Of a stretch of 64,000 nucleotides of DNA, positions 1,779 to 32,194 are shown one piece after another. The DNA is taken from NCBI RefSeq assembly GCF_002224265.1, contig NZ_CP012882.1, forward strand, positions 372,001 through 436,000, written 5' to 3'. Under the pieces are notes generated by a model. The model saw nothing but the letters and a program-made list of their open reading frames with translations, was not told the DNA's origin and ran no database searches. How positions within the stretch are numbered: position 1 is the first letter of the stretch; the number at the start of each line of letters is the position of its first letter. Source of the stretch: Vibrio vulnificus NBRC 15645 = ATCC 27562 (GTDB taxonomy: Bacteria; Pseudomonadota; Gammaproteobacteria; Enterobacterales; Vibrionaceae). The position numbers and the translations under genes were made by a program.

Positions 1779-2786
1779 ATGAATACACTCCTAAAACCAC
1801 ACCACAAGTTCACGTATTACATGATTGAGAATCGTACTGATTACACCATCTGGGGAATTGAAGATATTCACTTTTATCGTGCTTCTTTTGAAAAGAATTC
1901 ATCAAACTCAACCTACATCCAGAATCATGCAGCGTCAGCGACAGTTTATCATGCAATAGCGCGCGCAATTCTTTTGCATTGGTCTCGGCCCGCGATTCAA
2001 TATTTGATTGGTTCGGCGTCAGAGCTGGCTAAGATGCATTGGGCGATTCACTGCCAGCCGAACCAGACCATAGAAGTGGACTATTTTACCCAGCGCTTGC
2101 AAGTCACCACAGTAGAAAAGCAGCACGATTACAACAGCTACGACTCTTTGGTTCATTGGTTGGATGGCGCAAGCATGGCGATTTTGGCTGATAATCCACA
2201 GGCGAAAGCGCAGCTCAACGCCGTTCCCGCTCATGAAATCTCACGGAAAACAGACCTCACCGATTTTCGTCCGATTGAACAAGATTTCTTTCACTTGTTT
2301 AAGGCGTTTTTGTTTGGTGAGCAAAACAAGGAGCAACAAGCCGCACTGCTGCAAACAGTGGTTCCCTACCTCACCAGTGAGTTAATTGCTGAAGCTGAAA
2401 AAGGCGAACCTTACTGGATGAATTACTATGAGTTTCTTATTTTTCCGCTCTACAGCCTGATTGCGATTAGCTGGGGATTTGAAGCAACACCGCTAGACCA
2501 AGCGGTGGAAGCGTCTATCGAGGCCAACTATCAATGGTATGCCTATTTTGCCGAACAAAATGGCGGAAAAACCGGAGAAGAGAGCTTGCACCTTAATGAC
2601 CGTAGCTGCTTGTTTCACAACATTCTCACCGCATTTTTAAAGGTGCACTACCAACAAACGGGTGAAACACCAAGCTTCGATTCGCTCTACGCGCCGATGT
2701 GGTTGATCAAAGGCGAAGGCCTAAGCTTTGAAGCGCTCAAGGCCAACCCGCCCGAGTTCACCGTTGAATCCGTGTTAGCCGAATAG
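1779..2786 (+). CDS. Imm49-like immunity protein, copy 2
   Basis: A 335-residue paralogue of the preceding gene, 19 bases downstream and probably co-transcribed. The first ~63 residues are diverged (but still alignable, e.g. KPHHKF near the start and SNSTYIQN), whereas the remainder differs by only a handful of residues plus a two-residue insertion (EAEKGEPY against EKGHPY). This mosaic pattern suggests a recent tandem duplication or gene conversion that spared the N-terminal region. A bidirectional terminator lies directly after it, separating it from the convergent glucanotransferase gene. The immunity function is inferred from family resemblance only. Confidence 0.55.
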   Translation: MNTLLKPHHKFTYYMIENRTDYTIWGIEDIHFYRASFEKNSSNSTYIQNHAASATVYHAIARAILLHWSRPAIQYLIGSASELAKMHWAIHCQPNQTIEVDYFTQRLQVTTVEKQHDYNSYDSLVHWLDGASMAILADNPQAKAQLNAVPAHEISRKTDLTDFRPIEQDFFHLFKAFLFGEQNKEQQAALLQTVVPYLTSELIAEAEKGEPYWMNYYEFLIFPLYSLIAISWGFEATPLDQAVEASIEANYQWYAYFAEQNGGKTGEESLHLNDRSCLFHNILTAFLKVHYQQTGETPSFDSLYAPMWLIKGEGLSFEALKANPPEFTVESVLAE

Positions 2787-2875: not shown

Positions 2876-4846
2876 CTAGAAAGCACCTTGGGTGGCATTG
2901 CTACTGCTGCTCAGTTTATTGTTTGCACCAGATTGCCAAACCACGTTCAACGCCGGATTAGTTTCATCCCGTTTTAGGCACTTCCACTCAATATTTTGCG
3001 CCGCTGGTACGCTAATCGTTGCACCCCACGTTGGGTACTGAGCTGGGTCAAGCTTCACTGCACCTGAGGCAGCCCAGTTACCAAGCTGCGCAACACTGCC
3101 GACCGCGTAAACGCTTTGACCAAGATTAGTGTAGCCGTTGTAGCAAGTGAAAGTGACACTTTTCAACGTTGGATCTATGCTACCACTGCCTGTGGCATGC
3201 AGTACTACTGCTTGGTTCTGTGCTAAATGGAACGTTGCCTGTCCACCACTCACGTTGATACTTTCGTCACCAATCAAACTGATGTGGCTACCGTCTTTTA
3301 GTGACAAGTTACTGACCGTGATAGAGGTTGCTGGCCCTCTGTTGAGTGCCACCGTCACCACATCATCACCTTCTTGACGCTCATACACCAATACGTCGTC
3401 ATTGACCCAGCGTTGAGTATAGCTACCACGTTGGATGGCCAAGCTTTTTTTGCGCAGTGCCGTCAACGCCTGAATGATCTTAAAGGCGTCAGTATCCTGG
3501 TTGAAGCTTGGCATTTTTTCTCGGTTGTAAGGATCGCTTCCCACCTGACCAAACGCGTTTTGCGTAAAGTTGGCGGTGTAATGTTCGGTGCCATAGTAAA
3601 TCGCAGGAATACCTCGAACCGTCATAGTGGCCACCAAACCTAAGTTCACTCTTTGTTTCGCGAATGCTTCAGTTTGATTACCACCCGATTCGTTATTGCC
3701 TGGGCCAAAGGTTGAAGCATCTGACCGAAGTGCTGTGGAAATTCGTGCCATATCATGATTATCCATAAACACCACTTGCCAATCGTCACTGGTGAAAACA
3801 GATTTACGCGTTTCCAGATAGTTGTTCAGCGTTTTCATGCTGTTGCCCGGTCGGTTAGCGAGCACTCGCTCCATCGTATCTCTAAAGCCAAAATCTAGCA
3901 GTGCTGAACCAGAGGAGTTCGCATAGTCAATCGCATAACCATCAATACCTGTAGTTGTATTAGCACTAGCACCAAACCACTCGCCAAAGAAGTAGAACCC
4001 TTCACGGCCAAGAGTTTTACTGTAGTTGTAGATATCAGTAGTCCACTGTTGAATAAAAGACTTATCCATGTGTTTGATCGCATCAATACGAATGGCATCG
4101 ACACCCGCATCAATCCAACATTTTGAGCCATCAAGCAAATACTGATATACACTCTCATCCGATTGATTCAAGTCAGACAAGTTAAACAGGTTGTGATTAC
4201 GAACCTGATACCAGTTATTCCAGTCTGTTACCCCACCGTTATGGTGATACCAGTTGGTACCAGCCGCCACATCGGCATTGTAATCCGTGATGTACTTACC
4301 ATCGCGATACAAGGCGCCATATTCATTTTCATCGTTTCCGTTTGAGTGGTTTGGTGCGTAGTCAAGCACCAACTTCATGTTGTATTCCGCGCTATGCATT
4401 TTAGCGGTCAATTCTTTGAAATCGTCTAACGTCCCGAAGTGCTCATCCACACGGAAAAAATCTTTACCCCAGTATCCATGGTAGGCTGCCCCCCCATTAA
4501 CATCCAGATTGTCCGCATTATCAACTGGCGGAGTAATCCATATAGCTGTCACACCGAGTGACTTAAGATACGGTAATTAATTGATTAACCCACGGAGATC
4601 ACCACCAACATACTTTTTCAAGTTATTTGGATCGTACGTCGCAGGATTGCGACCAGCGTTGTTGCTCGCATCACCGTCACTAAAACGATCAAGGAAAACA
4701 AAATAAATGGTCTCCTGTCGAAAATCGAGAAACGAGCCCGGTTCCGCTTGTGTTGACGTATTAGCAAGTACAGTAGGGCTGCTAAAGAGCCCATTTGCGG
4801 CAATAGCAGCCAGTAGCGCACTGCAAAGCAAGGTGCGTTTTTTCAT
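2876..4846 (-). pseudogene. cgt: Cyclodextrin glucanotransferase gene with one in-frame stop (codon 90)
   Basis: The two open halves join in the same frame across a single TAA at 4577-4579, giving 656 codons, the length I recall for the Klebsiella oxytoca CGTase, which the sequence closely resembles throughout. An N-terminal signal peptide (MKKRTLLCSALLAAIAANGL) is followed by a GH13 barrel: nucleophile Asp in DAIRIDAIKHM (about residue 255), acid/base Glu in FFGEWFG (about 289) and the third Asp in MDNHDMAR (about 365). A C-terminal CBM20-like starch-binding domain starts near SVTFTCYNGY. The enzyme would be secreted and turn starch into cyclodextrins for the neighbouring uptake genes. The homologue has lysine where the stop is, so AAA or CAA to TAA is likely. 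Last gene of the leftward operon. The downstream part could only be made from an internal start without a signal peptide. Confidence 0.88.
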
Positions 4847-6136: not shown

Positions 6137-6625
6137 CTATTGGCACTCCATCACCATCGCCCATTGCGGCTTCTTATCCGGCGACAGTTGAATCGTCCAC
6201 AAATACTTAGCATCTTTGGGCAAATACACGACGGTGTTTTTAGCAAAACCACCGCGTTTAAGCTCTTTAAGTTGCCCAACGGCCATTTCCATACCAGAAA
6301 CCGTGAACTGAGGTGTCCAACTCATGGTGGCAAATTGCAAGCTAACGTTACCTGCTTTTTCTTCGCTCACTACTTGGTAAATGCCATCTCCTTTGTAACC
6401 CATTTTACGGTTATCCATGTGAATCCACTGACCATCGGGGAAGGTACCCACAACAAATAACGACGGTTTAATTGGGCCACGCTCGCTTTCCAATGTTGGT
6501 AAACGGCAATCTGAAAAACGAGCATCCACATTGGTGAGTTCAGGAGCAGCTTGCTCTGGAGAAGTACTGGCACAACCGGCGAGAACCGTCGCTGTCACGG
6601 CGGCAATCAAAAAAGTACGTTTCAT
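6137..6625 (-). CDS. Small lipoprotein of the cyclodextrin operon
   Basis: A 162-residue protein whose start is set at MKRTFLIAAVTATVLAGCAS, a type II signal peptide with lipobox LAGC; an upstream in-frame ATG adds seven residues but spoils the signal. The mature part is a compact, probably beta-rich domain (SLFVVGTFPDGQWIHMDNRK, then ...GIYQVVSEEKAG) that reads like an early-set or carbohydrate-binding fold, which is only an impression. Residue +2 after the lipid Cys is Ala, so sorting to the outer membrane is expected. Third gene of the leftward operon. It may assist the porin or hold dextrins at the surface; function unknown. Confidence 0.75.
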   Translation of the reverse strand: MKRTFLIAAVTATVLAGCASTSPEQAAPELTNVDARFSDCRLPTLESERGPIKPSLFVVGTFPDGQWIHMDNRKMGYKGDGIYQVVSEEKAGNVSLQFATMSWTPQFTVSGMEMAVGQLKELKRGGFAKNTVVYLPKDAKYLWTIQLSPDKKPQWAMVMECQ

Positions 6626-6712
6626 AACAAATCCTTGAAAAATCAATTTTTACTCGATAACTGCTGAGCCCAACCCCTTGAGATCTCAGCGATGGTTGGT
6701 CCTCACCAGCCA

Positions 6713-7723
6713 TTAGGCTGATTTCTTGTCAAACAGCCGAGCAAACCAGCGTTTTTGCTCTGGCCGAGAAGCTTTCATGTGTTCGTATTGCTGGGTGATT
6801 TTGTTGAGTACCGCTAAGTTACGGTAATACGCTTTGGACTCTTTGGCGGGATAACCAAACAAATCGCTACCAGCAGGAAAGGAATGACTCACGCCAGATT
6901 TGGCTTTAATAACGGAGTGGCTCCCGATAATAATATGCCCCGCAGTGCCCACTTGCCCGTGAGCCACGACGTGATCTCCCATGATAGTGTGTCCCGCAAA
7001 ACCACACTGAGAGACTATCAGGCAGTGTTTGCCAAGACGACAGTCGTGACCAATCTGCACTTGATTATCGATTTTGCTACCTTGGCCGATTATCGTATCG
7101 CCTAATGTGCCACGGTCTATGGTGTTGTTACAGCCGATCTCAACATCATCTTCAATGACTACTCTACCGACACTTTCTACTCTTTGATATTGCCCGTCTT
7201 TGCCCGACATATATTCAAAGCTGTAGTTGCCAATAGAGTTGTTTGAATCAATGGTGACATTGTTACCAATAACCGTTCCTTCTTTAATCACTGTATTCGC
7301 GTGAATTGCCACGTTGTTACCAATGGTGACACCATTCATGATGCGAACACCGGGCATGAAGTGACAACCTTGACCAATATGGCAATGTTTTCCTATGTAG
7401 ACCCCTTCAATTGTTGAGGTATTTTCTTGATCAAAGAGCTGATATTTATGCACTTTGTAATATCGAAGCAACTGATTGAGCTTGTCGACTTCAAGCTGTT
7501 CAATGACCACATGAGCTTTGGCTGAACTCTGAAGAATGGCTTCAGGTCCAACCAATACGTCCGCTTGCGATTTAGATACCCACTTGAGATCTGACCGTGC
7601 AAAGACCACTGCAAGGCCACCCGTTTGCTGACTTTGTATCGGTCGAATGGTATCCACAATGATGGAACGATCTCCTTCAATACGGCCAGACAAACATTGT
7701 GCGATTTCTAAAACGGTTAGCAT
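6713..7723 (-). CDS. lpxD: LpxD-type UDP-3-O-acyl-glucosamine N-acyltransferase paralogue
   Basis: A 336-residue protein with the LpxD layout: an N-terminal UDP-sugar-binding domain (to about residue 100), a left-handed beta-helix of hexapeptide repeats (for example VTIGNNVAIHANTVI, VVIEDDVEIGCNNTI), and a C-terminal helix. The segment NQVQIGHDCRLGKHC carries the histidine expected at the active site. Family enzymes add the second acyl chain in lipid A synthesis. The housekeeping lpxD normally sits in the bamA-skp-lpxD-fabZ-lpxA cluster, so this is probably a second copy. It is the second gene of the leftward operon, between the porin and the lipoprotein, 33 bases from the porin. Whether it modifies lipid A or another sugar nucleotide is unknown. 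Confidence 0.85.
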   Translation of the reverse strand: MLTVLEIAQCLSGRIEGDRSIIVDTIRPIQSQQTGGLAVVFARSDLKWVSKSQADVLVGPEAILQSSAKAHVVIEQLEVDKLNQLLRYYKVHKYQLFDQENTSTIEGVYIGKHCHIGQGCHFMPGVRIMNGVTIGNNVAIHANTVIKEGTVIGNNVTIDSNNSIGNYSFEYMSGKDGQYQRVESVGRVVIEDDVEIGCNNTIDRGTLGDTIIGQGSKIDNQVQIGHDCRLGKHCLIVSQCGFAGHTIMGDHVVAHGQVGTAGHIIIGSHSVIKAKSGVSHSFPAGSDLFGYPAKESKAYYRNLAVLNKITQQYEHMKASRPEQKRWFARLFDKKSA

Positions 7724-7756: not shown

Positions 7757-8794
7757 TTAAAAGCGGTACAAAGCTTGAAGATAGAGAGTATGCTGCTTTA
7801 GCTCACTCTCATTTTTAGCTTCCCATCCAGCCAGTTTACTTTTTTCTTCAATTTCATTCGCATACTCATATTCACCTTTTAGCAACCAGTTATCACCGAC
7901 TGCCTGTTCATAACCAAGCGTGGCTTTACGAATATCTTTAAAGTAATCAACATTGGCGTTGCCACCACCGCTGTTGGCAGCATTATTGGTTTCATTTTCA
8001 CCAACACGAACACGTGCGTAAAGAACACCCGCATCATCAAAACTGTATTGCACAATAGGTTCGATATACTTCTCAGTGAAGTCACTGATTTCATTTATGC
8101 CGCCACTAGCTTGGCGATCTTCGTTGTCTTTAATTTGGTAGTAAAATTCAACACCGAGCTCCCAACTCCCCAAGCGCTTGTATGGCTTAAATAGAATGCT
8201 GTAGCCTTCTTCGATGCGTTCCCCCCAAGCACTTTTATCTTCTTTGCTATAGAGATACTCAAGGTTCGAATAGAAACCCCAGTTGTAATCGTTGTTAAAG
8301 TAAGTGAGATAAGGACGTAAGCTGTGCTCGGCGAGCTCTTTACGCAAGCCCGTCACATAGGGTGAATACACTTTGCTCTTCGTGAACTCTAGATCGTAAA
8401 TCACCCCAGTCGCCCAACCATTGCTGAGGTCGAAGCCTTTGTTCAACGACACAAGATGTTTCATACCATCTTCGTTCTCGTGATACCCAGGCTCGACTTG
8501 AGAACGATCTTGTGTTTTCAGTGAATACAACGCGGTTAAGTTCCAACGCGCATTGTTGTAGTAGATACCAAAGACTTCGTTGGTGGTGGTTTTTTCTTTC
8601 TTCTTGTTGCCATTGAAACCATCCGTGACTTTATCTTCGTACTCGATAGAAGTACCAATATGGCCACCGAACTGTAAGGCTTCATCGAAGAAGCTGTTTT
8701 CTGCATCCAACCCACGACCACTGGCCGCAACTACGGATGAAGAAGAAAGAGCAAGCGCCGTTGCCACGGAGACAGAAATTAACGTTCTTTTCAC
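7757..8794 (-). CDS. OmpG-like outer membrane porin of the cyclodextrin locus
   Basis: A 345-residue outer-membrane protein. A signal peptide ([20 protein letters not shown], cleavage near VVAA) is followed by alternating aromatic/polar beta strands and a C-terminal strand ending in LYLQALYRF with the terminal Phe typical of outer-membrane barrels. It resembles monomeric OmpG porins, and by position it is the counterpart of CymA, the cyclodextrin channel of the Klebsiella cym cluster. It is the promoter-proximal gene of the leftward operon, and its promoter region is shared with the divergent binding-protein gene. The assignment to OmpG or CymA type is by resemblance; a channel for bulky glucans is the inferred role. 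Confidence 0.8.
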
Positions 8795-9195: not shown

Positions 9196-10425
9196 ATGAA
9201 TAAGACATGGATTAAAGCTGCACTGATCACTTCACTGTTTGGGTTACCCGTCGTTTCACATGCTCAAGAAATTGCCCCAGAGTCTGGTGCCGATTTATTG
9301 GTGTGGACAGATACGACAACACTCGACTACATGAAATACGCTGCGGAGTCGTTCAACCAAGATTTTGGCTACAACGTTAAATTCTCATTCCGTGGGCTAG
9401 CCCCCATTGATGCGGCATCGAGAATGATTCAAGACGGTGGTTCTGCTCGAGTGGCAGATATTGCAGAGATTGAGCACGACTTGCTCGGTCGCCTCGTTGT
9501 CGCAGGTGGCGCAATGGAGAATTTAGTTTCTGCAGCGAGAATAAAATCCACCTTTTTACCTAATGCCACTTCTGCAGCAGAATACGCAGGAGCAAGTTAT
9601 GGCTTCCCTGTCAGTTACGCCACTTTAGCGCTGTTTTACAATAAAGAGCTTCTGCCAAATGCACCGAAAACATTTGAAGAAATCATCGCGTTTGGCAAAG
9701 CATTCAACAACGCCAAAGAGAACAAGTATGCGTTGCTTTGGGATATTCAAAATTACTACGAATCGAGAATGTTCTTAACCTTGTATGGGGCTTACGAATT
9801 CGGTCAAAACGGCACTGATGCTAAAGATCTGGGCATCAATTCACCGCTTGCACTGCAAGGAATGGAAGCAATGAAAAGCTTGAAAGCGGCGAATAATTCC
9901 AACCCTGTTGATATGCGCAATCCTCAAGTGAGACGCGGGCTCTTTGGCGAAGGAAAAGTTGCAGCGATCATTGATGGCCCTTGGGCAATCCAAAGCTATG
10001 ACAGCAGTAACGTCAATTATGGCGTCGTTCCTATTCCAACATTTGAAGGCCAGCAACCACGTACCTTTTCGACGGTAAGATTGGCGGTCGTCTCTTCGTA
10101 CAGCGAATACCCACAAGCGGCTCAGCTATTTGCCGACTATCTCAGCTCGGACAAAATGTTGATGAAACGCTATGAGATGACAAAATCAATCCCACCCGTT
10201 CAGGCTCTAATGGAAAAAATCATCGTCGATGCTAACGAAGCAACCTACGCCATCATTGCACAAGGCTTCTATTCCGATGCAATGCCATCTATCCCTGAAA
10301 TGGGCTACTTATGGTCACCGATGGCAAGTGCGATCACCGCCATGTGGGTCAACGATCAATCCCCTAAGAAAGTGCTTGATCATGCTAAAGCGATCATCGA
10401 AGAGCAGATCGCATTTCAGGAGTAA
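9196..10425 (+). CDS. cymE: CymE-like periplasmic cyclodextrin/maltodextrin-binding protein
   Basis: A 409-residue solute-binding protein of the family-1 maltose type. Signal peptide MNKTWIKAALITSLFGLPVV ends near SHAQE; the mature protein shows the alternating lobes of this fold (LALFYNKELLPNAPKTFEEI; GKVAAIIDGPWAIQSY; IPEMGYLWSPMASAI). It should capture cyclodextrins or maltodextrins in the periplasm for the CymF/CymG/CymD importer. First gene of the rightward operon, three bases before the first permease. Cyclodextrin specificity is inferred from the neighbouring glucanotransferase and cyclomaltodextrinase genes; a second MalE-type protein is encoded elsewhere in the window. Confidence 0.85.
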   Translation: MNKTWIKAALITSLFGLPVVSHAQEIAPESGADLLVWTDTTTLDYMKYAAESFNQDFGYNVKFSFRGLAPIDAASRMIQDGGSARVADIAEIEHDLLGRLVVAGGAMENLVSAARIKSTFLPNATSAAEYAGASYGFPVSYATLALFYNKELLPNAPKTFEEIIAFGKAFNNAKENKYALLWDIQNYYESRMFLTLYGAYEFGQNGTDAKDLGINSPLALQGMEAMKSLKAANNSNPVDMRNPQVRRGLFGEGKVAAIIDGPWAIQSYDSSNVNYGVVPIPTFEGQQPRTFSTVRLAVVSSYSEYPQAAQLFADYLSSDKMLMKRYEMTKSIPPVQALMEKIIVDANEATYAIIAQGFYSDAMPSIPEMGYLWSPMASAITAMWVNDQSPKKVLDHAKAIIEEQIAFQE

Positions 10426-10427
10426 TC

Positions 10428-11711
10428 ATGCTGTTGTCTCAAAACATCAAAATCCCCACGTTGCATTCCTCTTGGTTGATCATGGGCGCAACCCAGCTGG
10501 CTAACAGACATTGGGTGAAAGGGGCAATATTGCTGACTATCCAATGCACGTTCATTGTCTATTTACCTGACATGGCCAGCGCACTGAAAGGATTGATCAC
10601 ACTAGGTGACGTTGCCCAAACTCGTCAGGGCTTCAAGGTCATCCAAGGTGACAATTCGATCTTTATGCTGGTAGAGGGGGTCATTGCCACACTCTTCCTC
10701 TTCCTCTTCCTTGTGATTTATTTCATGAACGTGAGAGACGCCAAGCAATGTCGCGTCTCTCACCTAAGCGTTGCGCAACAAGCGAAATCAATTTATGAAG
10801 AAAAATTCGCGTTCATCGTGCTGTCACCAGCCTTTGTTGCCAGTATTGCTTTCATTATCATGCCGATCGCTATTACGGTCTTGGTTTCATTTACCAACTA
10901 CTCATCACCACACCATATTCCTCCGAGAAACTTGGTGGATTGGGTCGGATTTAAGAACTTCCTCACCTTATTTGAGTTGAAAATCTGGTCGAGCACGTTC
11001 GTCGGCGTGGCTACGTGGACGGTAATATGGGCCATCGCTGCCACAGTGTGCACCTGTGGTTTTGGTTTTGTCTTAGCTCTGGCACTGGAGAATCGCAACA
11101 TCAAAGCGAAAAAACTGTGGCGCTTTATCTTTATTCTGCCTTATGCCATTCCAGCCTTTGTCACCTTATTGATGTTCCGCTTGTTGTTGAATGGCATCGG
11201 CCCAATCAACGCCACACTGAATTCTTGGGGATTCGAATCGGTCGCTTTTCTCTCCGACCCATTTTTGGCAAAACTGACGGTGATCGCCGTGAGCGTTTGG
11301 GTAGGAGCCCCCTATTTTATGTTGCTGATTGCTGGCGCATTAACCAACATTCCACGCGATATTTATGAAGCGAGCGAAGTGGATGGAGCCAGTAAGTTTC
11401 AGCAATTTCGAGAAGTCACGCTACCAATGGTACTTCATCAAGTTGCTCCATCATTGGTGATGACCTTTGCGCATAACTTCAATAACTTCGGTGCAATTTT
11501 CTTGCTGACAGAAGGTGGCCCTATCAACCCGGAATATCGCTTTGCTGGTCACACTGACATCTTAATCACATGGATTTACAAACTCACCTTAGACTTCCAG
11601 CAGTACCAAATTGCGTCGGTGATTTCGATCGTCATCTTCCTCTTCCTATCCGTCATCGCGATATGGCAGTTCCGTCGTATGAAATCCTTTAAAGACGATG
11701 TGGGGATGTAA
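10428..11711 (+). CDS. cymF: CymF/MalF-type ABC permease
   Basis: A 427-residue inner-membrane permease with about eight hydrophobic segments and the cytoplasmic EAA loop (YEASEVDGASKFQQFREVTL) that docks on the ATPase. An N-terminal region with extra membrane segments, as in MalF-like subunits, precedes the core. An AGGAG site lies eight bases before the ATG and only two bases separate it from the binding-protein stop, so coupled translation is likely. It forms the channel with the next gene product for cyclodextrin/maltodextrin import. Confidence 0.87.
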   Translation: MLLSQNIKIPTLHSSWLIMGATQLANRHWVKGAILLTIQCTFIVYLPDMASALKGLITLGDVAQTRQGFKVIQGDNSIFMLVEGVIATLFLFLFLVIYFMNVRDAKQCRVSHLSVAQQAKSIYEEKFAFIVLSPAFVASIAFIIMPIAITVLVSFTNYSSPHHIPPRNLVDWVGFKNFLTLFELKIWSSTFVGVATWTVIWAIAATVCTCGFGFVLALALENRNIKAKKLWRFIFILPYAIPAFVTLLMFRLLLNGIGPINATLNSWGFESVAFLSDPFLAKLTVIAVSVWVGAPYFMLLIAGALTNIPRDIYEASEVDGASKFQQFREVTLPMVLHQVAPSLVMTFAHNFNNFGAIFLLTEGGPINPEYRFAGHTDILITWIYKLTLDFQQYQIASVISIVIFLFLSVIAIWQFRRMKSFKDDVGM

Positions 11712-11713
11712 CT

Positions 11714-12547
11714 ATGAGTCGTGTATTAGAAAAACTGGGGACCGTGATCGTCTATCTTTTTTTGACGTTAAATGCCCTTTTGGTTTTAGGCCCGGTGCTA
11801 TGGACCATCCTCGCGTCATTTAAACCCGGCAATAACCTGTTCAGTTCATCGTTTGGTGAATGGGCCTTCACTTTAGACCACTACCAAACACTGTTTACCG
11901 ACACACCATATTTAGATTGGTACAAAAACACTTTTATGCTCGCAACAGCCAATATGTTGATCTCTTTAGTGATTGTCACTATGACGGCATTTGTGTTCTC
12001 TCGATACCGTTTTCAGGGAAAACGAAACGTACTCATGAGCATCTTAGTGTTACAGATGTTCCCTGCGTTTCTCTCGATGACCGCAATTTACATTTTGCTG
12101 TCTAAGATGGGGTTGATTGATACCTATCTCGGTTTGTTGTTCGTTTACGTAACGGGCTCCCTGCCTTTCATGACCTGGTTGGTAAAAGGTTACTTTGATG
12201 CAATACCTACCTCACTTGATGAAGCGGCAAAAATCGACGGTGCTGGCCATATGACCATCTTCCTCGAAATCATCTTGCCTCTTGCCAAGCCCATACTGGT
12301 ATTTGTCGCACTCGTCTCCTTCACAGGCCCATGGATGGATTTCATTTTGCCAACACTGATTCTGCGTAGCGAAGAGAAAATGACCTTGGCAATTGGTATC
12401 TTCAGTTGGATCTCTTCTAACTCAGCAGAAAACTTCACTTTATTCGCGGCAGGTTCGTTGCTGGTCGCTGTACCGATCACCTTGCTGTTTGTTGCCACAC
12501 AAAAACACATTACAACTGGCTTAGTCAGTGGCGCAGTAAAAGAATAA
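11714..12547 (+). CDS. cymG: CymG/MalG-type ABC permease
   Basis: A 277-residue permease with six hydrophobic segments and an EAA loop (LDEAAKIDGAGHMTIFLEII), the usual size and form of MalG-type subunits. It begins two bases after the CymF-type stop, so the two are translationally coupled partners. Together they would form the inner-membrane pore energised by the CymD-type ATPase of the divergent operon. The mature family has no signal cleavage; the first hydrophobic segment starts near residue 12. Confidence 0.87.
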   Translation: MSRVLEKLGTVIVYLFLTLNALLVLGPVLWTILASFKPGNNLFSSSFGEWAFTLDHYQTLFTDTPYLDWYKNTFMLATANMLISLVIVTMTAFVFSRYRFQGKRNVLMSILVLQMFPAFLSMTAIYILLSKMGLIDTYLGLLFVYVTGSLPFMTWLVKGYFDAIPTSLDEAAKIDGAGHMTIFLEIILPLAKPILVFVALVSFTGPWMDFILPTLILRSEEKMTLAIGIFSWISSNSAENFTLFAAGSLLVAVPITLLFVATQKHITTGLVSGAVKE

Positions 12548-12561
12548 CTTTAGGAATAATT

Positions 12562-14340
12562 ATGATTACTAGAAGCTCACTAACTCACTTGGCAAAAAGT
12601 GCGGACAGCTACGCCTATAACAATGAGACGTTGCACATCCGTTTTCGCAGTGCAAAAAACGAAATTGATCGCGTCACCCTATGGATTGGCGATCCTTACC
12701 AATGGGCCGAAGGTGGCTTAGATGGCGGTAACCTAGGTGGCAGCGATGCACATGGCTGGATTGGAGGTACGGAGGTTAACATGGTGCTTGAGGGACAAAC
12801 GGAGCACCACGACCATTGGTTTGCCGAATTCTCTCCACCCAAAAAACGCGCTCGTTATGGGTTTATCCTGTACGGGAAACACGGAGAAAAACTGCTCTTT
12901 GGTGAAAAACGCTGTGTGGATATTCACGCTCCGCGTGACGCAGAAAGAGAGTTGAGTAATTTAAGTAATTTTTTCTGCTTTCCGTTTATCAACCCCAAAG
13001 ACGTATTGAAAACACCAGATTGGGTACGTAACACCATCTGGTATCAAATATTCCCAGAACGCTTTTGCAATGGCCGCCCAGAGGTTTCACCTTCGGATGT
13101 ACAACCCTGGGGAAGCGAGCCCAAAAGCGATAACTTCATGGGAGGAGATCTTTGGGGAGTGATTGATAAACTCGATTATTTACAAGAGTTGGGGGTCAAT
13201 GGACTCTACTTTTGTCCTATTTTTACAGCTAACGCAAATCACAAATACGATACCGTCGACTATTACAATGTGGATCCTCATTTTGGTGGTAACGAAGCTT
13301 TTAGAGCCTTAGTAAAACAAGCGCATTCTCGCGGTATGAAAGTGATGTTGGACGCAGTTTTTAACCACATTGGCGATCAATCTCCTTTGTGGTTAGACGT
13401 GGTGAAAAAAGGCCAACAATCCGCTTACGCAGACTGGTTCTGGATTAAACAGTTCCCCGTTTATCCTGATAAGCCAAAGTCTCAGTGGGACTACAGCAAT
13501 CTCAACTACGAAACGTTTGGTAACGTGGCAGAAATGCCAAAACTGAATACCGAAAACCCAGACTGTCGCGCCTATCTATTAGATGTAGCCCGCCATTGGG
13601 TGGAAGAATTTGATATTGATGGCTGGCGTTTGGACGTGGCGAATGAAGTTGATCACGCATTTTGGCGCGATTTTCGTCAGGTCGTGAAAGAGATCAAACC
13701 AAATTGTTACATACTCGGAGAAATCTGGCACGAAGGAATGCCTTGGCTAAGAGGCGATCAATACGACTCGCTGATGAATTATCCCCTCACTCAAGCCATT
13801 ACCGATTTTTTTGCTCTGGGTGCCGACGACAAAACCACATTTATGAACGCGGTGACTCGCGCCTACTTGGCGTATCCGCGTAACGTAAACGAAGCAATGT
13901 TTAACTTGCTTGAAAGCCATGACACTACACGCTTATTGAGTTTATGTGGGAATGACAAGCGTAAAGCCAAACTCGCTTATCTATTCATGTTCAGCCAGGT
14001 TGGCTCTCCTTGTCTTTACTATGGCGGCGAAATTGGCATGGATGGAAAACGTGGAATGGGGCTTGAACTCAACCGAAAATGCATGACTTGGGATAACAAC
14101 GAGCAAGATCTGGAGTTCAAAGCGTTCATCCAACAACTGATCACTTGGCGTAAAACGAACCCCGAGTGGAATGCCCCTGACCTTTGCTGGTTAAATATTA
14201 ACCACCCCGACATCATTAGCTACCAAAGAGGAGACTCTCAATTTTTCCTCAACAATAGTGACTGTTATGTTGAGGTGATGTTTGAAGAGCAAACAATCTC
14301 GTTAAGCCCATACGGCTACCTGCTATTAACGGTGTCATAA
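12562..14340 (+). CDS. cymH: Cyclomaltodextrinase / neopullulanase (GH13), CymH-type
   Basis: A 592-residue cytoplasmic GH13 enzyme without a signal peptide. The first ~120 residues form the N-terminal domain typical of cyclomaltodextrinases, maltogenic amylases and neopullulanases; the barrel carries the nucleophile in DIDGWRLDVANEVDH, the acid/base in YILGEIWHEG and the third Asp in LLESHDTTR. It opens and cuts imported cyclodextrins to maltose and glucose units. Fourteen bases after the permease gene, within the rightward operon. Neopullulanase activity cannot be separated from cyclomaltodextrinase by sequence, but the transporter context favours cyclodextrins. Confidence 0.88.
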   Translation: MITRSSLTHLAKSADSYAYNNETLHIRFRSAKNEIDRVTLWIGDPYQWAEGGLDGGNLGGSDAHGWIGGTEVNMVLEGQTEHHDHWFAEFSPPKKRARYGFILYGKHGEKLLFGEKRCVDIHAPRDAERELSNLSNFFCFPFINPKDVLKTPDWVRNTIWYQIFPERFCNGRPEVSPSDVQPWGSEPKSDNFMGGDLWGVIDKLDYLQELGVNGLYFCPIFTANANHKYDTVDYYNVDPHFGGNEAFRALVKQAHSRGMKVMLDAVFNHIGDQSPLWLDVVKKGQQSAYADWFWIKQFPVYPDKPKSQWDYSNLNYETFGNVAEMPKLNTENPDCRAYLLDVARHWVEEFDIDGWRLDVANEVDHAFWRDFRQVVKEIKPNCYILGEIWHEGMPWLRGDQYDSLMNYPLTQAITDFFALGADDKTTFMNAVTRAYLAYPRNVNEAMFNLLESHDTTRLLSLCGNDKRKAKLAYLFMFSQVGSPCLYYGGEIGMDGKRGMGLELNRKCMTWDNNEQDLEFKAFIQQLITWRKTNPEWNAPDLCWLNINHPDIISYQRGDSQFFLNNSDCYVEVMFEEQTISLSPYGYLLLTVS

Positions 14341-14345
14341 AGCAC

Positions 14346-15239
14346 ATGATCAAACTTGGCTTATCACTTGATTCACACTGGATACGAGGCGTTTTGTTAG
14401 ATAATCAAAACGTTCTCTATCGCACTCAAGTCAGGACTCCAAGCACACCATTGCAAGCAGCAAGCACCCTTAGCTACATGACTGCCAATATGCAACGAAT
14501 GTTTGGGAGCATCTCAATGGCAGGCCTCAATGTGATGGAAGATTGCTGGAAAGACGAATTCACGCTGACAGCAAACAACAACTTGCCTAGAGTCCTTGCA
14601 CAATCATTGCCAGTGCCATGCAGCCAAATGAGTAGTGCTATCATTGCTCTAAGCCAAGTAAGTCATCTTCCTAAAGGGAACATTCTAAGTGCGGTTCTAG
14701 ATGATAGCTGCGAACTTTGCATGACCACCAACCAAAATGACGAGCAGTGGATTGGAAATACGTTGCAATTGTCTTGGGCTCATAAGCCACTTAAAAATTA
14801 TCAAAGCCTCATTGACGGCTTAACGCCTCTCTGCTGCTGTGGTTCAGATGAATGTCATAGACAGTACTTAACTCAAAAAGGCATTGAGCGACAGTATCAT
14901 CAGCTTTCGCTTCGAACTCTGGGTTATCAAGACATTCTACAAAATGTGGCTAATCAACAATCATGGGCCATTCGAATCTATCGAATATGGATTGACCAAC
15001 TGGCGCGCGCACTGACTGAGCCTATTCTGCGTTTCCAGCCAAGCTTGCTGCTGCTAAGTGGTAGCTTAATCCAGAATGACGATCTTGCTCTTAACCTAAA
15101 AAGCACCTTAAGTCGCCATTGCGCGATTGACTACTCACTCAACATACAGTGCTTACCAGTAGACGAGTATCGATTTGCCCATGGAGCAGCGTCAATGTGC
15201 GACATAAATCCAAGACAAGTCTCTACATTCACTGCGTGA
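14346..15239 (+). CDS. ROK-family-like protein (degenerate sugar kinase or regulator)
   Basis: A 297-residue protein with the outline of ROK kinases: an N-terminal strand MIKLGLSLDSHWIRGVLLD where kinases have an ATP-phosphate loop, and CCCGSDECHRQYLT in the place of the zinc-binding CxCGxxGCxE signature. No DNA-binding domain is present. Several kinase motifs are weak (the usual DIGGT-type start is replaced, the signature Gly and Glu are altered), so catalytic activity is doubtful. It starts five bases after the cyclomaltodextrinase stop and belongs to the same operon. It could phosphorylate glucose released inside the cell or act as a sugar-sensing partner of the regulator. Confidence 0.6.
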   Translation: MIKLGLSLDSHWIRGVLLDNQNVLYRTQVRTPSTPLQAASTLSYMTANMQRMFGSISMAGLNVMEDCWKDEFTLTANNNLPRVLAQSLPVPCSQMSSAIIALSQVSHLPKGNILSAVLDDSCELCMTTNQNDEQWIGNTLQLSWAHKPLKNYQSLIDGLTPLCCCGSDECHRQYLTQKGIERQYHQLSLRTLGYQDILQNVANQQSWAIRIYRIWIDQLARALTEPILRFQPSLLLLSGSLIQNDDLALNLKSTLSRHCAIDYSLNIQCLPVDEYRFAHGAASMCDINPRQVSTFTA

Positions 15240-15294
15240 TGAGTGATAACCTACATAGGAATATAAAAGCGTGAATCAGTACCGAGGAGCCCCC

Positions 15295-16101
15295 GTGACA
15301 GAGCTGGTAACAAAATTGATGGATTTCGGTTTTACTAAGACCGACGCCTTGGTTTACATCAATTTGCTAAAAAATGGCCGAGCAAGCGGATACAAAATTG
15401 CCAAAGAGATCGGTTTATCACGATCCTCTGTTTATTCTTCCATCGATAATCTTTACAAAAATGGCTGCATTTTTATGTCTGATGGAGAAACAAAAGAATA
15501 TGAAGCGAAGTCGCCCGATTTAATCTTCAACCAAATTGAAAAAAAGACGATTGAAAACATTCAAATTTTGAAGAAAGAGCTCTCTCGCATGATGCTGCAA
15601 GAAGAGAAAGAGTTCATCTACAACGTGACTGGGTTTGAAAACCTTCTGCAAAAAGCCAGAGAGATGCTAAACCTCGCTCAGGTGGAAATTTACCTCAATA
15701 CCGATTTTCATCTAGAGTTACTCTCAGAAGAGATCAGCCAAGCGATTGAGCGCGGCGTCAGAGTGATTGTTTTCTCCTTTAACCGACTCGCTATCCCTCA
15801 CCCTAAAGTGGAGTTGTACTCGCGCTCAGAGCAAAGCGAAAAACGCTATCCTTCACACCGATTTATGCTCGTGGTGGATATGAAGCAAGCGATGATGTTT
15901 TCACACCGCCAGGAAACTCAAGGGCTGTATTCTAACAATCGCTTGATTGTGAAAATGATGGCCGAGCACATCCACAGCGACATTTATCTCACTGAGTATG
16001 AAAAGTTAGACCCTGAGAAACGTTGCCGTATCGCGACCATTCACGAGCTCGAAAATGACATGGTTGTGGATGATCGTCAGCAAGTCCACATACCTTCTTG
16101 A
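15295..16101 (+). CDS. TrmB-family transcriptional regulator
   Basis: A 268-residue regulator with an N-terminal TrmB winged helix (LVTKLMDFGFTKTDALVYIN, then KNGRASGYKIAKEIGLSRSS) followed by a coiled region and a C-terminal sensor domain (about residues 115-240). The GTG start is chosen for its GAGGAG site five bases upstream; an in-frame GTG 24 bases earlier is possible. TrmB proteins control sugar transport genes, commonly maltose/trehalose systems, and bind the sugar themselves. As the last gene of the rightward operon it is the probable local regulator; the TAGTAGT repeat ahead of the first gene is a candidate target. Confidence 0.8.
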   Translation: MTELVTKLMDFGFTKTDALVYINLLKNGRASGYKIAKEIGLSRSSVYSSIDNLYKNGCIFMSDGETKEYEAKSPDLIFNQIEKKTIENIQILKKELSRMMLQEEKEFIYNVTGFENLLQKAREMLNLAQVEIYLNTDFHLELLSEEISQAIERGVRVIVFSFNRLAIPHPKVELYSRSEQSEKRYPSHRFMLVVDMKQAMMFSHRQETQGLYSNNRLIVKMMAEHIHSDIYLTEYEKLDPEKRCRIATIHELENDMVVDDRQQVHIPS

Positions 16102-16164
16102 GCCTTCCGCTTTTTACAGGCAGAGCAAACGTCCTGCCTGTCATCCATCTCCCAAATCACAAGC

Positions 16165-16198
16165 AAAAAAAAACCAACCGCAAAATGAGTGCGATTGG
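16165..16198 (-). terminator. Leftward terminator without an obvious gene
   Basis: On the minus strand CCAATCGCA pairs with TGCGGTTGG (one U-G pair), followed by nine T residues. On the plus strand the same pair becomes an A-C mismatch and no T-run follows, so the element is built for leftward transcription. Confidence 0.7.
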
Positions 16199-16363
16199 CT
16201 TATGTATGATGTGAACAATGTGTATTCACTAACAACGTCAGTTGGCTAGGTGACCCTCGGCTTAATAAGGGTCGACAAGTATTATGCATTAATCATGCCA
16301 ACTTTAAAAGGGCTATTTTTGGGCTGAATATCCCATATATTAACTCTTGCTAAAATAATTTTT

Positions 16364-28582: not shown

Positions 28583-31500
28583 GTGAACAAACAACCTTTC
28601 AACTTATCTCTGCTGGCGAAAGCCATCATGCCTATAATGGCAACCTCACTGCTCATTGGCTGTAACTCTTCTAACGATGGAGAGACGGCGAATCCACAAC
28701 CAGACACTGGCAAAGTGGCTCGTGTCTATTTCAAAGCGAGCGAAACTGCAACTCGAGCAGCAGCTGACAGCAGCGCTTACGACAAAGCGACGTTATACGT
28801 TTGGAATAACGACACCTGTGGTGGCTACGCCGAAACCGACGAAGGCCATGATGATTGGGGCACAGGTATTAAACCCACTGGCGTAGACGATAAGTTTGGT
28901 GCCTACTGGGATCTGCAAGTGCGCAGCGAAGCGACCCAGTGCATCAACTTTATTCCTCGCGTTGGCAACGATAAGCCCCTTGGCGAGTTCGATGCCAAAC
29001 TCGATCTGACCCAAACAGGCAAAAATAACGCCGTCTACACCCAACAAGGTGTGGCCGCCGTTTACCCAGAGCTGATCTCAACTTCTGACATCCCGGCCAA
29101 CACGGCACGCGTTTACATGAACACGCCAGATGGTGATGAAGGGCACTTCACCTTACATGTTTGGAACAACGACACCTGTGGCGCTTTTGATGGCAACGAC
29201 ACTTCATGGCCAGGTATGGAACCCACCGGCTTTAGTGATGTGTACGGACCCTATTGGGATCTGCCAGTGAAAGGCGCAGAGGGTTGCATCAACATCATTC
29301 CAAACAACAAATCCAACGGCGACTACCAAACTTCAGACCTTAAGTTTGAGTTTGATAAAACCACCGCGATTGGCAATGTCGCGTTTGTGTTTAAAGGCAC
29401 CAACAAGGTGTACTACACCGCATTGGCACAAAAGCCTGTGGCACAAGTGGAGCTAGCGGGCGCAAGCGCGATTTTTGCCGATGACAGCGTGATTCTAGTC
29501 AACGCCAAAGACGCCACCAGCGTCACACTCTACTACTCAGAAAGCGGTGAACTGGCTTTCGATAGCGCCAGCAAAAAAGTCACGGGTGCAACCAAACAAA
29601 TCACTTCAAGCAAAGCAGCGAGCGCCGATTGGAACAAAACCAAGCCACATCTGAGCAACGATTTTATCGGTTTTGAAATGGACTTCAGTGGCGAAGGTAA
29701 CACGCTGAAAGATCTGCTGAAAGGTCAATTGATCTTGGTGGCCAGCGATGCGACAGGCGTCATTAAAGCAACCGAAGTCCAACCTGCCAGCGCATTAGAT
29801 GCACTCTACGCCGCGGCCGCGACCAAGCTCAGTTATGGTGCGGTGATTAACCCAGACAGCACCACCACATTCCGCCTTTGGGCACCAACGGCGCAGAGCG
29901 TCAAGCTGATCCCGTACAATGCTGAAAAGCAAGCGCAAACCGCCATCACAATGACATTTGATGCCACCAGCGGAGCCTGGGTAGCAGAAAACACCGCACT
30001 CAAACACGGTGATTTCTACCGCTACGAAGTGACGGTTTACCACCCGGCTACAGACAAGGTCGAAACCTACCAAGTGACCGACCCCTATTCCTTGAGCCTC
30101 TCGATGAACTCGGAATACAGTCAAGTGGTGGATCTGGCCAACGCGGAGCTGAAACCGTCGGGATGGGACGCACTTTCTGCACCACACAACCAAGCAAACC
30201 CAGCCGAGTTTGTCTTGTATGAAGCGCACATTCGTGACTTCTCAGCACTGGATGACTCAACGGCCGAAGCCAATCGTGGCAAGTACAAAGCCTTTACTCA
30301 AGCAGGTGCTGCGCCTGTCGAGCATCTCAAAAAACTGGCTCAATCGGGCGTTACACACTTACATCTACTGCCGACCTTTGATATTGCGACCATCAATGAA
30401 GACCCAACCAAAGTGGCGAACATCAATCAGCCATTTGCTAAGTTGTGTGAACTGGATGCAAGCGTGAAAAACGATGCCGATTTCGGCAACTACTGCGACA
30501 GCAATGAAACGCTGAGCACCGTGTTTGAAACACTGGCAAAAAAAGACAGCAAAGAGAGCGCGGTAGTACAACGTTTGAACAGCCATGTGCGCAACCTAGA
30601 CTCATTTAACTGGGGTTACGATCCATTCCACTACACGGTGCCAGAAGGTTCTTATTCATCGGATGCTGAAGGTATGGTGAGAATCAAAGAGTTCCGTGAA
30701 ATGGTGATGTCGGTGAAAAAAGAGATCGGCATGAACGTGGTGATGGATGTGGTCTACAACCACACCAACGAATCAGGGGTATCGTCCAAATCGGTCTTGG
30801 ATCGCATTGTGCCTTGGTACTACCAACGCCTCAACGAGTTCTCAGGTGCGGTGGAGCAATCGACCTGTTGCTCTAACACGGCGCCGGAAAACCAAATGTT
30901 TGCCAAGCTGATTGACGATTCCATTAGCACTTGGGTGAAAGAGTACAAGATCGATGCGTTCCGCTGGGATCTGATGGGCCACCACCCACTGGCGCAAATG
31001 AAGCAAACCTTGGCTGCTGCCAAAGCCGTCGATCCAAATGTCTACTTCTACGGTGAAGGTTGGAACTTCGGTGAAGTGGGTAACGATCGCATGTTCAAAC
31101 AAGCCACTCAGTTAAACCTTGCAGGTACGGGCATTGGTTCATTCTCGGATCGTCTTCGTGACGCAGTCCGCGGCGGTGGCCCATTCGACAGCCAAGATTC
31201 GCTTCGTTCAAATCAAGGCTTTGGTAACGGTATTTACGTTCAAGTGAATGAGAAGAACGAGCAAAACGCGGCGCTGAAGACAACCGCGCTGCACCTTGCC
31301 GATCTGACTCGTTTGGGCATGGCAGGCAACTTAAAAGCCTTCCCATTCACCGATAGCAAAGGCAAAGCGATCACTGGTGCTGAGTTGGATTACAACGGTC
31401 AACCCGCGGGTTACGCGCAAGATGCGTGGGAAATCCAGAACTACGTCTCCAAACATGACAACCAAACCCTGTGGGACAACAACCAGTACAAGATTGCCTA

Positions 31501-32194
31501 TGCGACCACGGCCGCAGAGCGCACACGTATGCAAGCGGTTGGTTTGTCTACCGCGATGCTTGGCCAAGGCGTACCATTTATCCATATGGGCAGCGAGTTA
31601 CTGCGTTCTAAATCGATGCAGCGCGACTCGTATGACTCAGGCGATTGGTACAACCGCGTTGACTTCACTAAGCAAGACAACAACTGGAATGTTGGCCTGC
31701 CACGCGAAGACAAAGACGGCAGCAACTGGGCGATCATCGATGCCGTGATCACTGGCTCAAGCGATCACGCCATGCCAAGTGCCACAGACATCGATAACAT
31801 GGATAAGTTCTTCAACGAACTGGCCGCACTACGTGCTTCTTCTGGTCTGTTTACCCTAGGCAAAGGCAGTGAAATCATCAAACGCGTTGCGTTCCACAAC
31901 ACAGGCGCAGAGCAAACACCAGGGCTTATCGTGATGAGCATCGACAACAGCGGTGATAAGCACGATGCCACCATTGATGCTAAACGCGATGGCATGGTGA
32001 TTGTGGTGAACGCGTCGCCAAGCATGGTCAGTGACTTTGCCAAGTTTGATGCAGCGGGCTACACGCTCCATGCAGTGCAAACCAATGCGGGCAATGACTC
32101 ACTGGCGAAGAACCAAGATAAAGTGGCTCAAGTCGTGAATGGCAAACTCACGGTTCCCGCTTGGTCTGTCGCGGTCTTTGAGAAGCTGCGTTAA
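28583..32194 (+). CDS. pulA: Pullulanase, secreted lipoprotein (GH13 with tandem CBM41)
   Basis: A 1203-residue lipoprotein starting at GTG (MNKQPFNLSLLAKAIMPIMA, lipobox LIGC). Two repeated CBM41-like modules follow (ARVYFKASETATRA... and ARVYMNTPDGDEG..., each with a YVWNNDTCG-type core), then an early-set domain, the CBM48 region (TTFRLWAPTAQSVKLIPY) and the GH13 barrel with FNWGYDPFHYTVPEGSYSSD, nucleophile in DAFRWDLMGHH, acid/base in FYGEGWNFGE and the third Asp in VSKHDNQTLWDN. It hydrolyses alpha-1,6 links of pullulan and branched starch at the cell surface. Probably MalT-controlled. Confidence 0.93.
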   Translation: MNKQPFNLSLLAKAIMPIMATSLLIGCNSSNDGETANPQPDTGKVARVYFKASETATRAAADSSAYDKATLYVWNNDTCGGYAETDEGHDDWGTGIKPTGVDDKFGAYWDLQVRSEATQCINFIPRVGNDKPLGEFDAKLDLTQTGKNNAVYTQQGVAAVYPELISTSDIPANTARVYMNTPDGDEGHFTLHVWNNDTCGAFDGNDTSWPGMEPTGFSDVYGPYWDLPVKGAEGCINIIPNNKSNGDYQTSDLKFEFDKTTAIGNVAFVFKGTNKVYYTALAQKPVAQVELAGASAIFADDSVILVNAKDATSVTLYYSESGELAFDSASKKVTGATKQITSSKAASADWNKTKPHLSNDFIGFEMDFSGEGNTLKDLLKGQLILVASDATGVIKATEVQPASALDALYAAAATKLSYGAVINPDSTTTFRLWAPTAQSVKLIPYNAEKQAQTAITMTFDATSGAWVAENTALKHGDFYRYEVTVYHPATDKVETYQVTDPYSLSLSMNSEYSQVVDLANAELKPSGWDALSAPHNQANPAEFVLYEAHIRDFSALDDSTAEANRGKYKAFTQAGAAPVEHLKKLAQSGVTHLHLLPTFDIATINEDPTKVANINQPFAKLCELDASVKNDADFGNYCDSNETLSTVFETLAKKDSKESAVVQRLNSHVRNLDSFNWGYDPFHYTVPEGSYSSDAEGMVRIKEFREMVMSVKKEIGMNVVMDVVYNHTNESGVSSKSVLDRIVPWYYQRLNEFSGAVEQSTCCSNTAPENQMFAKLIDDSISTWVKEYKIDAFRWDLMGHHPLAQMKQTLAAAKAVDPNVYFYGEGWNFGEVGNDRMFKQATQLNLAGTGIGSFSDRLRDAVRGGGPFDSQDSLRSNQGFGNGIYVQVNEKNEQNAALKTTALHLADLTRLGMAGNLKAFPFTDSKGKAITGAELDYNGQPAGYAQDAWEIQNYVSKHDNQTLWDNNQYKIAYATTAAERTRMQAVGLSTAMLGQGVPFIHMGSELLRSKSMQRDSYDSGDWYNRVDFTKQDNNWNVGLPREDKDGSNWAIIDAVITGSSDHAMPSATDIDNMDKFFNELAALRASSGLFTLGKGSEIIKRVAFHNTGAEQTPGLIVMSIDNSGDKHDATIDAKRDGMVIVVNASPSMVSDFAKFDAAGYTLHAVQTNAGNDSLAKNQDKVAQVVNGKLTVPAWSVAVFEKLR

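What the first reader, a model, noticed from the sequence alone, without database searches (positions are those of the whole stretch)
2876..4846. Cyclodextrin glucanotransferase gene killed by one ochre codon
Two ORFs join in one frame across a single TAA at 4577-4579 (codon 90 of 656). All other parts of the gene, including signal peptide, catalytic residues and starch-binding domain, look intact, so the loss must be recent, the base may be a sequencing error, or the stop may be read through. The rest of the cyclodextrin uptake locus is intact, so the strain could use external cyclodextrins without making them.
Basis: partly seen in the sequence, partly recalled or inferred. Interest (0 to 1): 0.7.

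Follow-up and report, generated by a model that had tools for sequence, protein, structure and literature searches.

The report
Recurrent loss of Vibrio cyclodextrin-making enzyme
One stop codon has recently disabled the secreted enzyme with which this Vibrio would turn starch into cyclodextrins, while its genes for taking up and digesting cyclodextrins look intact, and some other Vibrio strains and species lack or have broken the same enzyme, so it looks like a repeated loss rather than a one-off accident.

Summary
An in-frame TAA at 4577-4579 (minus strand, codon 90 of 656) splits a cym-locus cyclodextrin glucanotransferase gene (cgt). [quoted passage not shown] Full-length copies exist; one differs from the window at only two other residues, and 79 of 79 full-length homologues examined have a sense codon there. 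So the loss is recent; a lone base-calling error or functional read-through is unlikely.

It is not isolated. In 33 Vibrio cym loci with the cgt site in view, cgt is intact in 27, broken in two (window; a second species with a truncated remnant) and absent in four. Eight core uptake/catabolic genes are intact in 262 of 264 cases. However, the flanking ROK gene is also missing or split in 4 of 33. No genome of 227 has this CGTase without porin CymA, while six have CymA without it. At least two more frame breaks occur in V. vulnificus proteins. Best reading: repeated loss of a secreted, shareable enzyme with private uptake kept. Whether loss is selected or merely tolerated is open.

The parts
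4580..4846 (-). cgt 5' piece, codons 1-89: signal-peptide-like start and first strands of the catalytic domain (motif DRFSDGD at codon 53)
   Evidence: aligned at 61-87% in 10 of 10 named loci; signal peptide judged by eye
4577..4579 (-). in-frame TAA, codon 90
   Evidence: sense residue at this column in 79 of 79 full-length homologues
2876..4576 (-). cgt 3' piece, codons 91-656 plus TAG: GH13 catalytic domain and CBM20; first in-frame start after the stop is GTG at 4552
   Evidence: Pfam; PDB CGTases
4118..4120 (-). codon 243, Cys where 78 of 79 homologues have Phe and 1 has Tyr: the only window-only residue in 566 codons
   Evidence: coordinates
4489..4495 (-). run of seven G (from codon 118); other V. 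vulnificus proteins change frame here
   Evidence: P0121, P0029, P0032
4885..6045 (-). cymD-like ABC ATPase (MalK type); a later ATG lies at 6015
   Evidence: Pfam; synteny
6137..6646 (-). small lipoprotein-like ORF conserved in cym loci
   Evidence: 33 of 33 Vibrio loci; Pfam only weak
6713..7723 (-). LpxD-like hexapeptide acyltransferase within the cym operon
   Evidence: Pfam; NCBIfam TIGR01853 at 242.9 bits, cut-off 242.5; 33 of 33 loci
7757..8794 (-). cymA, cyclodextrin porin
   Evidence: Pfam PF16941 E 1.6e-177, full length
9196..10425 (+). cymE-like periplasmic binding protein
   Evidence: Pfam
10428..11711 (+). cymF-like permease
   Evidence: Pfam
11714..12547 (+). cymG-like permease
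   Evidence: Pfam
12562..14340 (+). cymH-like cyclodextrinase
   Evidence: Pfam Alpha-amylase plus Alpha-amylase_N
14346..15239 (+). ROK-family protein, flanking and variable among loci
   Evidence: Pfam; missing or split in 4 of 33 loci
15271..16101 (+). TrmB-type sugar regulator
   Evidence: Pfam; present in 33 of 33 loci

Best explanation
The window holds a recent null allele of cgt, the gene for a secreted cyclodextrin glucanotransferase at the end of a cym operon of V. vulnificus. Shown from sequence: a TAA at codon 90 ends translation after the signal peptide and about 60 residues; full-length copies exist in the species; the neighbouring cym uptake and cyclodextrinase genes are full length. 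Inferred: no active CGTase is made, so the strain cannot make cyclodextrins with it but can still import and open cyclodextrins or linear maltodextrins made by other cells or by its own other exported amylases. In Vibrio this state has arisen repeatedly: cgt, last gene of its operon and acting outside the cell, is lost while core uptake genes are kept.
For: 79 of 79 full-length homologues have a sense codon at the stop. P0001 differs from the window at 0 residues in the 5' piece and 2 in the 3' piece, so the loss is recent; one of the two, codon 243, is a change at a near-invariant site, as expected once constraint is gone. Eight core cym genes are full length in the window. Over all 227 Vibrio genomes held, CymA is found in 34 and the CGTase in 28; all 28 have CymA, 6 of 34 CymA genomes have no such CGTase. 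In 33 loci with the cgt site in view: cgt intact 27, broken 2, absent 4, against 2 of 264 non-intact slots for eight core genes (Fisher 2.9e-5). G015 (L105) keeps a cgt remnant with TAG at codon 22 and homology ending near codon 123 beside an intact cym locus. On a tree of seven cym proteins the functional/non-functional split needs six changes. In V. vulnificus proteins, at least two other lesions: a frame change at the G run (P0121 with P0029/P0032, 10 contigs) and one near codon 36 (P0123).
Against: The flanking ROK gene is missing or split in 4 of 33 loci, not different from cgt (6 of 33, p 0.73), so a position or edge effect could explain part of the pattern. Only 2 of the 6 non-intact cases show a visible lesion; with the four absences dropped the contrast is marginal (2 of 29 versus 2 of 264, p 0.05). 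Absences could be non-gain: two CGTase types occupy the site, and their distribution on the cym tree needs several changes. Loci were chosen by CymA, which hides losses of CymA itself. The Fisher test ignores kinship. G140 has cymF and cymH split, so breakage is not unique to cgt, though three split genes in one locus suggest assembly errors. Strain-level counts come from clustered protein lists.
Confidence: 0.8

Rival explanations
1. Sequencing or assembly error: the strain's gene is whole.
For: Single base; raw reads could not be seen. Very close full-length relative P0001.
Against: The assembly used 14 million Illumina reads with corrected PacBio reads (PMC5578856), and substitution errors are rare in such data (general knowledge). 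A second window-only change at a near-invariant codon 243 would need a second error. Eight core cym genes show no break.
Confidence: 0.08
2. Read-through or a restart makes a working enzyme from the split gene.
For: The downstream frame is open for 566 codons; a GTG lies nine codons after the stop.
Against: TAA followed by T is a strong stop context (general knowledge) and TAA ends 15 of 22 window ORFs checked. Restart at GTG 4552 would lack the signal peptide and first barrel strands, and no clear ribosome site precedes it (by eye). An open frame after a recent stop is expected without any function.
Confidence: 0.03
3. Neutral decay through redundancy: other exported amylases feed linear maltodextrins into the Cym system, so CGTase is dispensable and its loss is merely tolerated.
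For: The genome has two further GH13 proteins with export-signal-like starts (L002 687 aa, L005 651 aa) and a lipoprotein-like pullulanase at 28583-32194. A cited title on K. oxytoca CymE names both maltodextrin and cyclodextrin transport (reference list seen; paper not held). ROK, also at the edge, is lost as often.
Against: Most V. vulnificus copies stay full length (26 of 30 listed proteins at 97% identity or more), and the gene is under strong constraint between species (dN/dS about 0.03, dS near saturation).
Confidence: 0.5
4. Selected loss of a public good: non-producers save the cost of a secreted enzyme and live on products of producers.
For: One-sided pattern, uptake without enzyme in 6 of 34 and enzyme without uptake in 0 of 28 genomes. 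Precedent in Vibrionaceae for alginate lyases (PMC5036157, passages).
Against: No fitness data. One-sidedness is also expected if the enzyme is useless without uptake. ROK control as above.
Confidence: 0.3

Closest known systems
cym cyclodextrin locus with CGTase of Klebsiella oxytoca group
   Same: Same genes in the same order; K. grimontii and K. michiganensis loci align across cgt and eight cym genes
   Different: cgt is interrupted here; ROK and TrmB genes flank the Vibrio locus and were not found in the two Klebsiella loci
Cyclo-maltodextrin operon of V. paracholerae, V. metoecus and some V. cholerae (PMC8357300, passages)
   Same: Same operon in the same genus; alpha-cyclodextrin use reported for 4 of 4 V. 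paracholerae strains tested
   Different: The passages seen do not treat V. vulnificus or cgt loss
Scavenger Vibrionaceae lacking secreted alginate lyases (PMC5036157, passages)
   Same: Oligomer use kept without the polymer-cutting secreted enzyme
   Different: Other polysaccharide and enzymes; there phenotypes were measured, here only genes were seen
Solved CGTases such as 4cgt, 1cyg, 1cgt
   Same: Catalytic domain and CBM20 align; GEW and DNHD motifs kept
   Different: Shorter protein, 656 codons, no separate D domain reported by Pfam; stop at codon 90 and Cys at 243

Membership tests
CGTase (GH13) | GH13 catalytic domain with nucleophile, acid/base and transition-state residues | tested here: met
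   PF00128 E 2.1e-37; RIDAIKH, FGEWFG and FMDNHDM at codons 253, 287, 360, aligned to 4cgt. Roles of the residues recalled
CGTase (GH13) | C-terminal CBM20 starch-binding domain | tested here: met
   PF00686 E 4.9e-23
CGTase (GH13) | Central aromatic residue typical of cyclising enzymes | tested here: met
   Phe in NLFNLSD aligned to Tyr in NLYDLAD of 4cgt; its meaning is recalled
CGTase (GH13) | One uninterrupted exported polypeptide | tested here: not met
   TAA at codon 90: a broken allele of a CGTase gene
CGTase (GH13) | Forms cyclodextrins from starch | not testable with these tools
   needs an assay of an intact relative
cym cyclodextrin uptake locus | CymA porin, binding protein, two permeases, ATPase and cyclodextrinase together | tested here: met
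Public-good loss (scavenger genotype) | Uptake kept, secreted enzyme lost, repeatedly | tested here: met
   four of six cases are absences that may not be losses
Public-good loss (scavenger genotype) | Loss specific to the secreted gene | tested here: inconclusive
   2 of 264 for core genes but 4 of 33 for ROK
Public-good loss (scavenger genotype) | Fitness benefit in the presence of producers | not testable with these tools
   needs competition experiments

The most novel reading that the evidence does not exclude
Vibrio populations hold producers and non-producers of cyclodextrins: cgt is repeatedly switched off or deleted by selection against making a shared product, and in V. vulnificus a run of seven G inside cgt, absent from the 12 other-species genes in which that site could be read, acts as a mutation-prone off switch, with an out-of-frame form already on 10 listed contigs.
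Probability: 0.2. Interest if true: 0.6.

Novelty: new member of a known kind. Interest (0 to 1): 0.4.

Why it matters
Cyclodextrin use is a simple, genetically compact case for testing loss of public goods: one secreted enzyme and a private import system. If loss is selected, V. vulnificus strains and species such as those behind G015, G059, G083, G184 and G031 offer natural non-producers with uptake intact. Practically, the type strain, a reference for the species, should not be assumed to make cyclodextrins, and annotation of the downstream piece as an alpha-amylase would mislead.

Tried and rejected
A control search with the cyclodextrinase CymH gave one V. vulnificus cluster (P0126) and no shortened V. 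vulnificus form among 120 listed of 6223; the clusters are built so differently from the CGTase list (30 rows at 97% or more) that I give it little weight. dN/dS on the window branch cannot be resolved: DNA of other V. vulnificus strains was not available and dS to the nearest species is 1.6-2.2 or saturated. Shortened proteins P0003, P0053, P0084 and P0097 come only from the source 'lgn' and may be assembly artefacts; P0028 (558 aa) is broken somewhere before codon 99, place unknown; none of these is counted as a proven lesion. Apparent TAA inside matches of G033, G037, G048, G100 and G120: for G033, G037, G048 and G120 the gene is intact in one open frame, so these are overruns at gene ends; G100 is a distant 27% match and was not followed. 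G221 (L135) was left out of the 33-locus count because the contig ends close behind cymD. G082 and G090 porin matches (E about 1e-30) were not counted as CymA. A promoter and terminator scan was uninformative. Literature searches listed no paper on cgt loss in Vibrio; only open-licence full texts are held.

Full report
What is there. On the minus strand an ATG at 4846 starts a frame that meets TAA at 4577-4579, codon 90, and then stays open for 566 codons to a TAG at 2876-2878. The downstream piece matches Alpha-amylase and CBM_20 in Pfam and cyclodextrin glucanotransferases in the PDB, best 4cgt at E 1.3e-86.

Which organism. G000 has two contigs of 3,266,118 and 1,741,042 bases (list). The paper on V. 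vulnificus type strain ATCC 27562 (PMC5578856, whole text read) gives 3,266,104 and 1,741,042. Proteins at 97% identity or more are named V. vulnificus where a name is given. I take the window as that strain. The paper reports 14 million Illumina reads plus corrected PacBio reads.

Is the stop shared? Of 120 proteins listed (155 found), 79 are 640-665 aa long; all 79 have a residue at the stop column. P0001 is identical to the window in the 5' piece and differs at two residues in the 3' piece. Among 30 listed proteins at 97% identity or more, 26 are 656 aa long (119 contigs by the listed counts) and 4 are shorter (12 contigs). So the ochre is young and not fixed in the species.

A second lesion. 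Over 566 downstream codons one residue is found only in the window: Cys at codon 243, against Phe 78 and Tyr 1. It lies ten residues before the RIDAIKH motif. Two independent changes make a lone base-calling error less likely and fit loss of constraint. Between species the downstream part has dN/dS of 0.026-0.031 against five relatives, with dS of 1.6-2.2, near saturation; three further relatives were saturated.

Read-through and restart. The stop is TAA followed by T, and TAA ends 15 of 22 ORFs checked in the window. The next in-frame starts are GTG at codons 99 and 133 without a clear ribosome site, and a restart would lack the signal peptide and first strands. I rate function by these routes at 3%.

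Other breaks in the species. P0121 (127 aa, 10 contigs) follows the cgt sequence to the run of seven G at 4489-4495 and then continues as the window's other frame, GSLPWILG then stop; P0029 and P0032 (6 and 4 contigs) are the matching downstream pieces. In 12 of 14 other-species genes where the site could be read, the longest G run there is 2-4. P0123 (52 aa) shares the window's N terminus and changes frame near codon 36. A V. paracholerae protein, P0124, changes frame near codon 42. Thus at least three distinct lesions occur in V. vulnificus, counting the window.

Across the genus. In all 227 Vibrio genomes held, CymA is found in 34 at E 1e-40 or better and the CGTase in 28 at E 1e-100 or better. 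All 28 have CymA; six CymA genomes (G015, G031, G059, G083, G184, G221) have no such CGTase. I fetched the loci and asked for each gene whether one open frame covers it. G221 was dropped because its contig ends close behind cymD, leaving 33 loci. cgt is intact in 27, broken in the window and G015, absent in G031, G059, G083 and G184. Eight core genes (cymD, lipoprotein, LpxD-like, cymA, E, F, G, H) are intact in 262 of 264; the two exceptions, cymF and cymH, are both in G140, where the ROK gene is split too, which suggests assembly errors. Fisher gives 2.9e-5, without correction for kinship. Against a special role of cgt: ROK, also at the edge, is missing in three loci and split in one, 4 of 33, not different from 6 of 33 (p 0.73), though TrmB beyond it is present in 33 of 33. 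With the four absences dropped, cgt gives 2 of 29 against 2 of 264, p 0.05.

The clearest parallel is G015 (L105). Beside eight full-length cym genes it keeps a cgt remnant from ATG at 12948 with TAG at codon 22; homology ends near codon 123 and the rest is gone.

Loss or non-gain. On a tree of seven cym proteins of 34 Vibrio and 2 Klebsiella loci, having or lacking a whole cgt needs six changes; G031 and G221 share one. Two CGTase types fill the site, one with CBM20 and one 57-64% identical. The CGTase tree keeps the main clades but unites the second type, which the cym tree does not, so replacement has also happened. The two broken genes are certain losses; the absences are probable ones.

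How it works. Inferred from the K. oxytoca pathway (PMC8760340, passages): CGTase outside the cell makes cyclodextrins from starch, CymA lets them through the outer membrane, CymE-FG-D import them, and the cyclodextrinase opens them. Without CGTase the rest can still serve on cyclodextrins or linear maltodextrins from elsewhere. The genome also encodes two more GH13 proteins with export-like N termini and a pullulanase, so redundancy is a serious alternative. In V. paracholerae the same operon goes with growth on alpha-cyclodextrin (PMC8357300, passages). Scavengers without secreted alginate lyases are described in Vibrionaceae (PMC5036157, passages).

Verdict. A real, recent null allele, ordinary on its own, and one instance of a repeated loss of cgt next to conserved uptake genes. 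Selection for loss is possible but not shown.

Noticed in passing
722-1759 and 1779-2786 (+): Tandem pair of 345- and 335-aa proteins, 88% identical overall but divergent in the first ~60 residues; weak match to Immunity protein 49 (E 0.0022 and 0.043, below cut-off). A copy 99% identical to the second lies beside cgt in G140.
   Followed up: partly
6713-7723 (-): An LpxD-like N-acyltransferase paralogue sits inside the cym operon and is full length in 33 of 33 Vibrio loci examined and both Klebsiella loci; its role in cyclodextrin use is unclear.
   Followed up: partly
16164-16274 (-): Qrr small RNA (Rfam RF00378, 108.3 bits) directly beside the cym locus, between the TrmB regulator and the next gene.
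   Followed up: no
L109 (G140): cymF, cymH and the ROK gene are each split in two frames while cgt is whole; probably assembly indels.
   Followed up: partly
L112, L114, L115, L117, L121, L122, L128, L129, L132-L134, L136, L137: A second CGTase type (57-64% identical to the first) occupies the same place at the end of the cym operon in 13 Vibrio genomes.
   Followed up: partly
4489-4495 (-): Run of seven G in the V. vulnificus cgt, not seen in the 12 other-species genes read there, with a frame-changed form on 10 contigs.
   Followed up: partly
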